From Embleya hyalina (GTDB lineage Bacteria; Actinomycetota; Actinomycetes; Streptomycetales; Streptomycetaceae): a DNA stretch of 64,000 bases. How positions within the stretch are numbered: the first letter of the stretch is position 1; every line of letters begins with the position of its first letter. The notes under the pieces are model-generated. The model ran no database searches, was not told the origin of the DNA, and saw only the letters and a list, made by a program, of their open reading frames with translations. Position numbers and translations under genes: made by a program. Location: positions 76,632 to 140,631 of the forward strand of contig NZ_BIFH01000032.1 of NCBI RefSeq assembly GCF_003967355.1, read 5' to 3'. Below are positions 42,293 through 57,062 of the stretch, in pieces.

Positions 42293-42775
42293 TCAACTCC
42301 GCGCGAACCGCGCCAGGTTCTCCGCCGTGGGCCGCCACGCCTCGGCGAATTCCGCCGGCAGCTCGACGGCGTCCAGGATCGGATGCCGCGGTACCGAGAC
42401 CCGATACCTGATCCGCCAGCCGCGCGGGGTGTGTTCGAGGATGTCGTAGTAGTCCCCGCCGTGTACCTCGCCGTCGATCAGCGTCGCGATGTATCGGCTG
42501 CGGGCCCGGACCGTACCGCCGGCGTCCACCAGGAGCACGGTGTCGAGCGTCTGGTGGTCGGGGGTGTCGGGACTGCGTCGGCCGGTGAACTGCCGGGCCG
42601 AGGCGATGCCTTCGATCGTGTAGCCGGCGCCGATGGTGTTCTCGATCACCGCGTTGTCCGTGAACACCCGGTCCAGTTCGCCGACTTCGTCGTTGTCGAA
42701 GACGTGCGCGAACCGGGCGAGGGTGTCGTGGATCTCCGCGACGTCCGCCGCGCTCAGCGCGGGTCCGCCGGTCAC
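42293..42775 (-). CDS. NTF2/SnoaL-like protein, paralogue 2
   Basis: This 160-residue cone-shaped alpha+beta-fold protein has a helical N-terminus (DVAEIHDTLARFAHVFDNDEV), ELDRVFTDNAVIENTIG, ARSRYIATLIDGEVHGGDYYDI, and HTPRGWRIRYRVSVPRH, the SnoaL-4/NTF2-like pattern with a central pocket. Members include polyketide cyclases, dehydratases and isomerases. It is homologous along most of its length to the gene just upstream and is joined to it by a GTGA overlap. It is the last gene of the PKS operon. The catalytic role is unknown. A ring-forming or dehydrating step on the released polyketide is the natural hypothesis. Confidence 0.85.
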   Translation of the reverse strand: MTGGPALSAADVAEIHDTLARFAHVFDNDEVGELDRVFTDNAVIENTIGAGYTIEGIASARQFTGRRSPDTPDHQTLDTVLLVDAGGTVRARSRYIATLIDGEVHGGDYYDILEHTPRGWRIRYRVSVPRHPILDAVELPAEFAEAWRPTAENLARFARS

Positions 42776-43236
42776 GGCGCGACCGCTTCCGCGAGTCGGA
42801 CCGCGAGCGGGAAGCCGACCCCGGTCACGCCCGCCCCGGCCTCCCGGGGTGCGCGCGGCAGGCTCAGCCGATAGGCGATCCGCCAGCCGGCCGGGGTCTT
42901 CCGGAGGATGTCCAGGAACTCGCCGCCGGTGATGCGGCCGGCCGGGTTGATCCCGATGTAGCGGCTGCGCGCCTGGACCCGGCCGTGCTCGTCCACCTCG
43001 ACGATCGTGTTGACCGTGTGGTGATCGGGCGTCGCCGCGCTCTTGCCCCGGGTGTACTCGGCGAACTCGGCGATGCCGCGGAAGGCCCGCCGCGGCCCGG
43101 CGCCGATCTCGACCACGACGTCCTCGGTGAACACGAGGTCGAGTCCGTCCACGTCACCGTTGTCGAAGACGTGCGCGAACAGCGCGAGCGTGCGGTGGAT
43201 CTCGGCGAGGTCCACCGGGTTCAATACCTTCGTCAT
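42772..43236 (-). CDS. NTF2/SnoaL-like protein, paralogue 1
   Basis: This 154-residue protein has the same fold and motifs as its neighbour: DLAEIHRTLALFAHVFDNGDV, GLDLVFTEDVVVEIGAG, DHHTVNTIVEVDEHGRVQARS, GGEFLDILRKTPAGWRIAYR. Aligning the two gives blocks AEIH-TLA-FAHVFDN and RARSRYI/QARSRYI, so they arose by duplication. They may form a heterodimer. It starts 61 bases after the terminal PKS gene, on the same strand, so expression with the PKS is expected. A polyketide cyclase-like role is inferred from context; metabolite hydroxylation or isomerisation are alternatives. Confidence 0.85.
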   Translation of the reverse strand: MTKVLNPVDLAEIHRTLALFAHVFDNGDVDGLDLVFTEDVVVEIGAGPRRAFRGIAEFAEYTRGKSAATPDHHTVNTIVEVDEHGRVQARSRYIGINPAGRITGGEFLDILRKTPAGWRIAYRLSLPRAPREAGAGVTGVGFPLAVRLAEAVAP

Positions 43237-43297
43237 GAATGTCCCAGCCTCGAAGTGATGTCGTATCGCAGTGGCAGTGGTGGGGTTGGGGGTGGGC

Positions 43298-54300: not shown

Positions 54301-56995
54301 CGAGCAGTGCGGTCTCGGCCTCCGGCCGGTCCCGGCGCAGCGCGGCGGCGAACGCCGGTACGCCCGGCGCCTCGGTCGCCGCCGCCGGTGCGTCCCCGGC
54401 CTCGCCCGCGTCGGCCAGGCTGTCCTGGGCCATCGCGGTCAGTACCCCGTCGGGTCCCAGTTCCAGGTAGGTGGTCACGCCCGCGTCGGCCAGGTGGGTG
54501 ATCACGTCCCGGAAGCGCACCGCCTGCCGAACGTGTGCCACCCAGTGCGCGGCGTCGAGCGGTCGCTCGGCGTCGGCGGGTCGACCGGTGAGGTTGGAGA
54601 TCACCGGGATGCGCGGCGCGTGGTGGGTCAGGCCGGCCGCGATCCGACCGAACTCGTCGAGCATCCCGCCCATCAGCGGCGAGTGGAACGCGTGGCTGAC
54701 CCGCAGTCGTTTGGTCTTGCGGCCCCGCGCGGCGAAGTCGGCGGCGACCGCGAGCGTCGCGTCGGCGGCCCCGGACACCACGATCGAGCGTGGCCCGTTG
54801 ATCGCCGCCACCGCCACCTCGGCCTCGCGACCGGTCAGCGCGGCGGCGACCTCCTCCTCGGTGGCCTGGACGGCGACCATCGCGCCGGTCGTGGGCATCG
54901 CCTGCATCAACCGAGCCCGGGCGGCGACCAGGGTCGCGGCGTCGGGGAGGGTGAGTACGTCCGCGACATGTGCGGCGGTCAGTTCGCCGAGCGAGTGTCC
55001 GGTGACGAAGTCCGGCCGCAGGCCCCAGGACGCGTACAACCGGTACAGCGCCACCTCGATCGCGAACAGCGCCGGTTGCGCGTACACGGTCCGGTCGAGT
55101 TGTTCGGCCGCGTCCTCGACCAGGCCGAACACCACGTCGCGCAGCGGGTACGGGACGTGCCCGGTCAGTTCGGCGTCGAGCGCCGCTGCGACCTCGTCGA
55201 AGGCGGCGGCGAACACGGGGTGGGTATCGTGCAGTTCGCGGCCCATGCCGACGCGCTGGCTGCCCTGGCCGGTGAACAGGTAGGCCAGTGGCCCCGATCC
55301 GCCCGCACCGCCGCGCACAAGGCCGGCGGCCGGTGCGTCGGCCGCGAGCGCGTCGAGCCCGGTCAACAATCCCGCCGGGTCGTCGGCGACCACGATCGCC
55401 CGCTCGTCGAACCGGGTCCGGGCGGTGGCCAACGAGTAGCCGACGTCGAGCACGTCGGCGCTCTTGAGCGCCGCGCCGCGCACATGCGCCGCCAGTCGGG
55501 CCGCCTGGGCGCGCAATGCGGTCGGGGTCCTGGCGGTGAGCAGCCAGGGCGTCGCGGAGGACGGTCGCCGCGCACCCGCCTCCCCCGGTGCGGCCGGCAG
55601 ACCTCGATCGGCGGCCTCGGGTTGTTCGAGGATCAGGTGTGCGTTGGTCCCGCTCGCGCCGAACGCCGAGATCCCGACCCGCCGGGGCCGGCCGGTCTCC
55701 GGCCACGCCCGGGCCTCGGTGAGCAGCCGGACCGCGCCCGCCGACCAGTCCACGTGCGGGGTCGGTTCGTCGATGTGCAGCGTCCTGGGCAGTACGCCGT
55801 GCCGCATCGCCTCGATCATCTTGATCACGCCGACGATCCCGGCGGCGGCCTGGGTGTGTCCGATGTTGGACTTGGCCGAGCCGATCCACAGCGGTCGGTC
55901 CTCGGGCCGGTCCCGGCCGTAGGTCGCGATCAGCGCCTGCGCCTCGATCGGGTCGCCCAGGGTGGTACCGGTGCCGTGTGCCTCGACCGCGTCGACGTCG
56001 GCGGCGCTCAGCCGGGCGTCGCGCAGCGCCTGGCGGATCACCCGCTGCTGCGAGGGCCCGTTGGGCGCGGTCAGGCCGTTGGACGCGCCGTCCTGGTTGA
56101 CCGCGCTGCCGCGCAGCACCGCGAGGACCCGGTGGCCCAGGCGGCGGGCGTCCGCGAGCCGTTCGACCAGGACCAGGCCGGTGCCCTCGGACCAGCCGGT
56201 GCCGTCGGCGGCGCCGGCGAACGCCTTGCAGCGCCCGTCGGCGGCCAGCCCGCGCTGTCGGGAGAACTCGACGAAGCCCAGCGGCGACGCCATCAGCGTC
56301 ACCCCGCCGGCCAGCGCGAGATCGCATTCGCCGCCGCGCAGCGAGTGGGCCGCCAGGTGCAGCGCGACCAGCGAGGAGGAGCACGCGGTGTCCACCGTGA
56401 CGGCCGGGCCCTCGAAACCGAACGAGTAGGCGATGCGGCCGGACGCGACGCTGGCCGCGTTGCCGTTGCCGATGTAGCCGCCGACCTCGTCGGGCACCCG
56501 GCTCAACCGGGCCGCGTAGTCCTGGCCGTTGAGGCCGGCGAAGACCCCCGTGCGGCTGCCGGCGAGGGTGGTGGGGTCGATGCCGGCCCGCTCGAACAGT
56601 TCCCACGCGGTCTCCAGGAGGAGCCGGTGTTGCGGGTCGGTGGCCAGCGCCTCGCGCGGCGAGATGCCGAAGAACTCGGCGTCGAAGCCCGCGATGTCGG
56701 GCAGGAACGCGCCCTGGCGCGTGTACGACTTCCCCGGCCGGTCGGGGTCGGGATCGTACAACTCCTCGACGTCCCAGCCACGATCGGCGGGGAAGTCGCC
56801 GACCACGTCGATGCCTTCGGCCAGGATGCGCCACAGCTCCTCGGGGGATTCCGCGCCGCCGGGCAGCCGGCAGGCCGCCGAGACGATCGCGATCGGCTCG
56901 GGCGTCGGGTTGCGCGCCTCCTCCAGCCGGGCCTGCGTGTCGTGCAGTTCGACGGTCAGCCGCTTGAGCAGGTGGCGGATCTGCTGGTCGCTCAT
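48305..56995 (-). CDS. Type I PKS, two modules: KS-AT-DH-KR-ACP and KS-AT-ACP
   Basis: This is a 2896-residue protein. Module 1 has KS about 33-460 (Cys near 203), AT from about 570 with [12 protein letters not shown] and SHAFHSPLM near 768 (malonyl-CoA), and DH near 985-1260 with intact [10 protein letters not shown]. Its KR is near 1430-1620 ([31 protein letters not shown] of B type, [19 protein letters not shown]) and its ACP Ser is near 1748 ([10 protein letters not shown]). It should make a double bond. Module 2 has KS from 1810 (Cys near 1986), AT from about 2345 with [10 protein letters not shown] and YASHSAQ (methylmalonyl-CoA) and ACP Ser near 2770 ([10 protein letters not shown]), with no reductive domains, leaving a beta-ketone. 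The C-terminal acidic tail ([13 protein letters not shown]) is a docking domain for the terminal PKS. The ATG at 56995 starts the docking coil. Confidence 0.95.
49149..49949. repeat. AT-coding segment, second copy of 45745-46545
   Basis: Partner of the repeat described at 45745-46545. It includes the YASH and GHSQGE coding stretches and the AT start [10 protein letters not shown]. Confidence 0.8.
50398..50660. repeat. KS-coding segment, second copy of 46989-47251
   Basis: Partner of the KS repeat in the terminal module. The identical block ends sharply where the [10 protein letters not shown] region meets VDVVEAHG-coding sequence. Confidence 0.8.
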
Positions 56996-57062
56996 GGTGG
57001 TTGTGCCTTTCGCGTGGACCGGCCGGTCGGGAGCCACCGGCGGGTCGGGGAATACCGGCGGA

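What the first reader, a model, noticed from the sequence alone, without database searches (positions are those of the whole stretch)
42293..57000. PKS end built for a dimethyl pyrone or pyridone ring, with two candidate cyclases
The penultimate module is KS-AT-ACP and the last lacks a KR, both with methylmalonyl ATs, after a module that leaves a double bond. The TE would therefore receive a 2,4-dimethyl-3,5-dioxo-6-enoyl chain. Such diketo thioesters are the known precursors of 4-hydroxy-alpha-pyrones, gamma-pyrones and (after amidation) pyridones such as piericidin. Two homologous NTF2/SnoaL-like proteins are encoded directly after the TE and could shape the ring closure, possibly as a heterodimer.
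Basis: partly seen in the sequence, partly recalled or inferred. Interest (0 to 1): 0.75.

Follow-up and report, generated by a model that had tools for sequence, protein, structure and literature searches.

The report
Compact polyketide line with paired cyclase-like proteins
This is the end of a seven-unit polyketide assembly line from a Streptomyces relative. Its last two steps leave two neighbouring ketones that normally close to a small pyrone ring, and it is followed by two conserved NTF2-fold proteins of unknown job that recur beside a whole family of related, apparently undescribed gene clusters.

Summary
The domain reading holds, with one omission. The gene at 43298-48250 is KS-AT-DH-ACP-TE: no KR, but it carries a DH whose catalytic His and Asp are kept in three species and which shows no relaxed selection. 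The penultimate module is KS-AT-ACP, both ATs carry the methylmalonyl motif, and the module before makes a double bond. The whole line (loading plus six modules, reaching beyond the window) predicts a C19 2,4,8,10-tetramethyl-3,5-dioxo-9,11-dihydroxy-6-enoate. A 4-hydroxy-alpha-pyrone is the likeliest release product; a macrolactone is not excluded. A pyridone is unsupported: no asparagine-synthase gene on the contig, no methyltransferase or oxygenase in the cluster. The two SnoaL_4 proteins are real, their genes overlap by 4 bases, and they are anciently diverged partners. A protein of this type is conserved in more than 20 sister clusters (Kitasatospora, Streptacidiphilus, Nonomuraea, Frankia and others) that nearly all end in a KR-DH module. 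It therefore follows the C5-keto penultimate module and the TE, not the diketo end, so a job in closing a diketo pyrone is unproven. Cluster borders, fixed by synteny with Yinghuangia, hold only PKS, SnoaL pair, type II TE, regulators and transporters. No described product was found in the papers searched.

The parts
42293..42775 (-). SnoaL_B: SnoaL_4 (PF13577) NTF2-fold protein, 160 aa; relatives of this type occur in the sister clusters
   Evidence: Pfam 5.7e-14; AlphaFold model pLDDT 82, NTF2 fold; dN/dS 0.16
42772..43236 (-). SnoaL_A: SnoaL_4 NTF2-fold protein, 154 aa; partner found only in this cluster type and as orphan copies in the distant family f18
   Evidence: Pfam 2e-15; pLDDT 81; own clade 99/99
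43298..48250 (-). PKS A4, last extension module 6: KS-AT(methylmalonyl)-DH-ACP-TE; no KR; DH His963/Asp1143 kept
   Evidence: Pfam; motifs; DH dN/dS 0.31, 95% 0.16-0.53
48305..57037 (-). PKS A3: module 4 KS-AT(malonyl)-DH-KR(B-type)-ACP and module 5 KS-AT(methylmalonyl)-ACP
   Evidence: Pfam; motifs
57063..64000 (-). PKS A2 (continues to 66617 outside the window): modules 2 and 3, each KS-AT(methylmalonyl)-KR(B-type)-ACP
   Evidence: Pfam on L015; motifs
38904..39665 (-). stand-alone type II thioesterase, conserved left border of the cluster in Yinghuangia
   Evidence: Pfam Thioesterase 5.8e-54; synteny
39712..40470 (-). SARP-type regulator (BTAD), present in G004 and SID3343, absent at this place in Yinghuangia
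   Evidence: Pfam 1.8e-45
40681..41580 (+). metallophosphoesterase, also beside about half of the sister clusters
   Evidence: Pfam 3.5e-16
41577..42230 (+). 4'-phosphopantetheinyl transferase, also beside several sister clusters
   Evidence: Pfam 4.6e-28

Best explanation
A complete modular PKS (KSQ-propionyl loading plus six modules) builds 2,4,8,10-tetramethyl-3,5-dioxo-9,11-dihydroxypentadec-6-enoyl-ACP (acid C19H32O6). The C5 enol oxygen attacks the C1 thioester on or after the TE, giving a 4-hydroxy-3,5-dimethyl-6-alkenyl-2-pyrone (C19H30O5, [M+H]+ about 339.217). The SnoaL_A/B pair is a two-protein unit acting on or after the line, around the C5-keto region shared by every member of the cluster family, by steering ring closure or by protecting or processing the released chain. 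The last-module DH has no beta-hydroxyl to act on and is at least structurally maintained. Shown: domains, motifs, gene order, cluster borders, conservation. Inferred: chain structure, ring form, role of the pair.
For: Domain content and AT/KR motifs. Penultimate keto module with methylmalonyl AT plus a TE in all seven relatives read in full (six, G004), so a C5-O to C1 six-ring is possible in each. No methyltransferase, P450, glycosyltransferase or amidotransferase among the genes conserved with Yinghuangia, which fits a bare 4-hydroxy-alpha-pyrone. Diketo thioester to pyrone is established in the aureothin system (PMC6916388). A/B gene overlap in three lineages and an old A clade.
Against: The TE's nearest solved relatives are macrocycle-forming TEs (FluC, then DEBS and Pik), and free 9- and 11-hydroxyls are predicted. 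Pyrones can close without any enzyme, so a conserved NTF2 pair may do something else. Sister clusters with the same type of SnoaL_4 protein nearly all end in a 2-enoyl chain. No product is known.
Confidence: 0.45

Rival explanations
1. Macrolactone: the TE closes the chain on the 11-OH (12-membered) or 9-OH (10-membered ring), and the NTF2 pair then works on the macrocycle, for example transannular hemiketal or oxa-Michael closure onto C5/C7.
For: TE most similar to macrocycle-forming TEs FluC (3e-56), DEBS and Pik; tautomycetin TE is weaker. Hydroxyls at C9 and C11 predicted. Loading, M1 and M2 KS domains are orthologous across the family, so a C9 oxygen is predicted in all.
Against: 3,5-Diketo acyl chains cyclise readily to pyrones; no TE from a pyrone pathway was available for comparison.
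Confidence: 0.3
2. The NTF2 pair acts on the shared delta-hydroxy enone (9-OH, C6=C7, C5=O) as a dehydratase or pyran-forming cyclase of SalBIII-like chemistry, and the acid end closes separately or stays open.
For: SnoaL_4 protein conserved with lines that always supply C9-OH and C6=C7-C5=O; the fold includes scytalone dehydratase-like proteins; SalBIII shows that small proteins of this fold form pyrans in modular pathways (PMC4648038).
Against: No sequence link to the MonB/SalBIII family was found; the 11-OH needed for a C7 tetrahydropyran is absent in the commonest sister type.
Confidence: 0.15
3. Piericidin-like pyridone after amidation.
For: Same diketo end.
Against: No asparagine-synthase gene on contig C32, no methyltransferase or oxygenase in the cluster; PieC is SRPBCC, not NTF2-like (PMC4979870).
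Confidence: 0.02

Closest known systems
Aureothin/neoaureothin modular PKS (AurA-C)
   Same: Compact modular line giving a methyl-branched beta,delta-diketo thioester that becomes a pyrone
   Different: No AurI-type methyltransferase or AurH P450 here; propionate rather than nitrobenzoate start; paired NTF2 proteins; enough modules for a colinear reading, whereas aur uses modules iteratively
Piericidin cluster (PieA1-6, PieC, PieD)
   Same: Diketo end made by a type I PKS
   Different: PieD asparagine synthase and methylation genes absent; PieC is SRPBCC while the partners here are NTF2-fold
SalBIII/MonB polyether cyclases
   Same: Small NTF2-fold proteins beside a modular PKS
   Different: Different sequence family; no epoxidase in the cluster
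SnoaL polyketide cyclases (PF07366)
   Same: NTF2 fold; sister clusters carry one true PF07366 SnoaL plus one SnoaL_4
   Different: The two proteins here belong to PF13577 and stay below the PF07366 cut-off; no type II PKS
Fluvirucin (FluC), DEBS and Pik terminal TEs
   Same: Nearest solved TE sequences
   Different: Those close macrolactams or macrolactones; the acyl chain here carries a 3,5-diketone

Membership tests
Piericidin-type alpha-pyridone pathway | Asparagine-synthase-type amidotransferase (PieD) | tested here: not met
   PF00733 hits in the genome, none on contig C32
Piericidin-type alpha-pyridone pathway | SRPBCC protein PieC | tested here: not met
   Proteins after the TE are SnoaL_4/NTF2; PieC described as SRPBCC in PMC4979870
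Aureothin-type pyrone pathway | Beta,delta-diketo methyl-branched thioester before release | tested here: met
   Modules 5 and 6 lack KR and have methylmalonyl AT motifs; iteration or skipping not testable
Aureothin-type pyrone pathway | Pyrone O-methyltransferase and P450 | tested here: not met
   None among genes conserved with Yinghuangia or identified beside the PKS
SnoaL polyketide cyclase (PF07366) | Match above the family cut-off | tested here: not met
   SnoaL_A 23.5 bits against cut-off 28.4; SnoaL_B no hit; both above the PF13577 cut-off
MonB/SalBIII pyran cyclases | Sequence membership | tested here: not met
   Profile search of solved structures finds Rv3472, 3b8l, a putative scytalone dehydratase and ketosteroid isomerases, not SalBIII or MonB
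MonB/SalBIII pyran cyclases | Pyran-forming activity | not testable with these tools
   Needs enzyme and substrate
Macrolactone-forming modular PKS | TE of the macrocyclising sequence group | tested here: inconclusive
   Nearest solved TEs are FluC, DEBS and Pik, but no pyrone-pathway TE was available for comparison

The most novel reading that the evidence does not exclude
The SnoaL_A/B pair is an obligate heteromeric cyclase, and together with the maintained DH of the KR-less last module it forms a new offloading machinery that turns a C5-keto chain into a specific oxygen ring: a family-wide mode of ring formation in type I PKSs, in which the sister clusters use a SnoaL/SnoaL_4 pair and an SDR instead.
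Probability: 0.13. Interest if true: 0.75.

Novelty: new variant of a known kind. Interest (0 to 1): 0.42.

Why it matters
It links a widespread, apparently undescribed family of compact PKS clusters (Streptomycetaceae, Streptosporangiaceae, Frankia) through three shared features: a KR-less penultimate module, a tandem of two NTF2-fold proteins and an oligopeptide-type ABC transporter. The form in this window differs from its sisters by lack of the last KR and of the SDR and by a different NTF2 partner, so comparing products would test what NTF2 pairs do in type I PKS pathways, which is known for only a few cases.

Tried and rejected
Pyridone: rejected for lack of an asparagine-synthase gene. 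Aureothin-like vestigial DH as a parallel: the bracketed inactive domains in the aur line are ACP0 and AT4, not a DH (PMC6916388). Using AurF (PF11583) to find a pyrone-pathway TE for comparison failed: the family is in 388 of 395 genomes. Plasmid searches gave only weak SnoaL hits and generic PKS genes. Papers on saccharothriolide, bispolide, actinoallolide, SnoaL with type I PKS, and Embleya pyrones gave no matching cluster. Phmmer of SnoaL_B against solved structures found nothing convincing. Last-module DH as a decaying relic: not supported, dN/dS 0.31 (0.16-0.53), within the range of the two working DHs.

Full report
Setting. The window is contig C32:76632-140631 of a 12.05-Mb actinomycete genome. 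The DNA beyond the window was fetched, so the whole assembly line could be read.

The observation. On the minus strand the line reads: A1 (66749-76351) KSQ-AT(methylmalonyl)-ACP and KS-AT(malonyl)-DH-ER-KR-ACP; A2 (57063-66617) two modules KS-AT(methylmalonyl)-KR-ACP; A3 (48305-57037) KS-AT(malonyl)-DH-KR-ACP and KS-AT(methylmalonyl)-ACP; A4 (43298-48250) KS-AT(methylmalonyl)-DH-ACP-TE. The KRs of modules 2, 3 and 4 carry LDD/IDD (B-type) motifs, so a trans C6=C7 is expected. Specificities rest on motifs, not on measurement.

Predicted chain (inference from colinearity): propionate start, then C12-C15 butyl, C11-OH, C10-Me, C9-OH, C8-Me, C6=C7, C5=O, C4-Me, C3=O, C2-Me, C1 thioester; acid C19H32O6, any monolactone or pyrone C19H30O5.

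Cluster borders. Comparing with Yinghuangia, the conserved set is TEII, SnoaL_B, SnoaL_A, A4, A3, A2, A1, a LuxR-type regulator, a four-gene oligopeptide-type ABC transporter, TetR and MFS; outside it, on both sides, nothing in the Yinghuangia stretches is syntenic. No methyltransferase, oxygenase, glycosyltransferase or amidotransferase lies in this set, and no asparagine-synthase gene lies on the contig. This removes the pyridone branch, and it makes O-methylated gamma-pyrones unlikely unless a distant enzyme acts.

A wider family. Searching with SnoaL_A in 298 genomes of the same bacterial family and in named genomes brought in more than 20 related clusters from Kitasatospora, Streptacidiphilus, Nonomuraea, Acrocarpospora, Herbidospora and Frankia. 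In the five of these read in full the line begins with KSQ-AT(methylmalonyl), a fully reducing module and a KR module, and always has a KS-AT(methylmalonyl)-ACP penultimate module. Four of the five end in KS-AT(malonyl)-DH-KR-ACP-TE; one Streptacidiphilus-type line (G065) ends in KS-AT(malonyl)-ACP-TE. After the TE come an SDR, a true SnoaL (PF07366) and one SnoaL_4 protein, then the same ABC transporter and often the metallophosphoesterase and phosphopantetheinyl transferase found here at 40681-42230. The loading, M1 and M2 KS domains of the two forms group as orthologues. So SnoaL_4 is conserved with the C5-keto penultimate module and the TE, and not with a diketo end. A closure from the C5 enol oxygen onto C1 would still be possible in all of them.

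The pair. SnoaL_A and SnoaL_B are 51% identical, and their genes overlap by 4 bases in the window, in SID3343 and in Yinghuangia. In the tree A is its own clade (99/99) that also holds two proteins from the distant family f18 (G613, G528), each encoded beside a second, B-like protein. The two are therefore old partners and not a recent copy. In G613 the pair is an orphan away from the PKS, which sits on another contig, and in a close relative (G392) the B copy has a large internal deletion (L102). In the cluster form studied here, A stands where the sister clusters have the true SnoaL, so a tandem of two NTF2-fold proteins is common to both forms. Models are confident in the core (pLDDT 81 and 82) and match many NTF2-fold proteins of different function: Rv3472, 3b8l, Aln2, ActVI-ORFA, SdnG, a putative scytalone dehydratase. 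Fold alone does not give the reaction; ActVI-ORFA was long proposed to be a cyclase and is now argued to protect an intermediate (PMC11315284).

The DH of the last module. It keeps His ([20 protein letters not shown] in Yinghuangia) and Asp (LLDAALH; PLDAALH in G004) in three species. All three show PAS where the other DHs of these clusters mostly show PG. Between the window and G004 its dN/dS is 0.31 (0.16-0.53), against 0.23 and 0.50 for the two DHs that have work to do; identity to Yinghuangia is 66%, against 64% and 63%. It is not decaying. Structural upkeep is the simplest reason; a catalytic role in ring formation is not excluded.

Release. The TE is closest among solved structures to FluC, then DEBS and Pik, a group that makes macrocycles, which keeps a 10- or 12-membered lactone open. 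Against this, 3,5-diketo thioesters are the accepted precursors of pyrones, and the alpha/gamma form in aureothin mutants is set by a methyltransferase that is missing here (PMC6916388). I put the pyrone at about 0.45 and a macrolactone at about 0.3.

Limits. Colinearity, AT choice and KR outcome are predictions; the two species samples are partial; gene calls outside the window come from a simple script; the paper library holds open-licence papers only, so a description of this family elsewhere cannot be excluded.

Noticed in passing
window 43298-48250, residues 931-1225 of A4: A DH domain with intact catalytic residues and purifying selection in a module without a KR; PAS replaces PG after the HxxxGxxxxP proline in all three species.
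   Followed up: yes
L034-L044, L047-L060, L082, L083: A family of more than 20 compact PKS clusters with TE-SDR-SnoaL-SnoaL_4 followed by a four-gene oligopeptide-type ABC transporter; no description found in the papers searched.
   Followed up: partly
L080:8987-9921 (G613), L102:9978-10600 (G392), L079:2408-4141 (G528): Orphan SnoaL_A/SnoaL_B-like copies in family f18 genomes away from the PKS; in G392 the B gene has a large internal deletion, in G528 a third partial copy lies beside them.
   Followed up: partly
window 11086-23028, minus strand: A run of genes resembling aromatic acid breakdown: arylmalonate decarboxylase-like, fumarylacetoacetate hydrolase family, double cupin, an FAD-monooxygenase/old-yellow-enzyme fusion like salicylyl-CoA 5-hydroxylase, 4HBT thioesterase and a CoA ligase.
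   Followed up: no
window 32305-37027, plus strand: Indolepyruvate:ferredoxin oxidoreductase-like gene followed by an acyl-CoA dehydrogenase, conserved next to the cluster in G004 and SID3343 but not in Yinghuangia.
   Followed up: no
L052 (Rhodococcus yunnanensis) 9947-12031: A SnoaL_B relative (52%) beside further small NTF2-like genes and alpha/beta hydrolases, a setting without PKS; the subfamily may have an origin in breakdown pathways.
   Followed up: no
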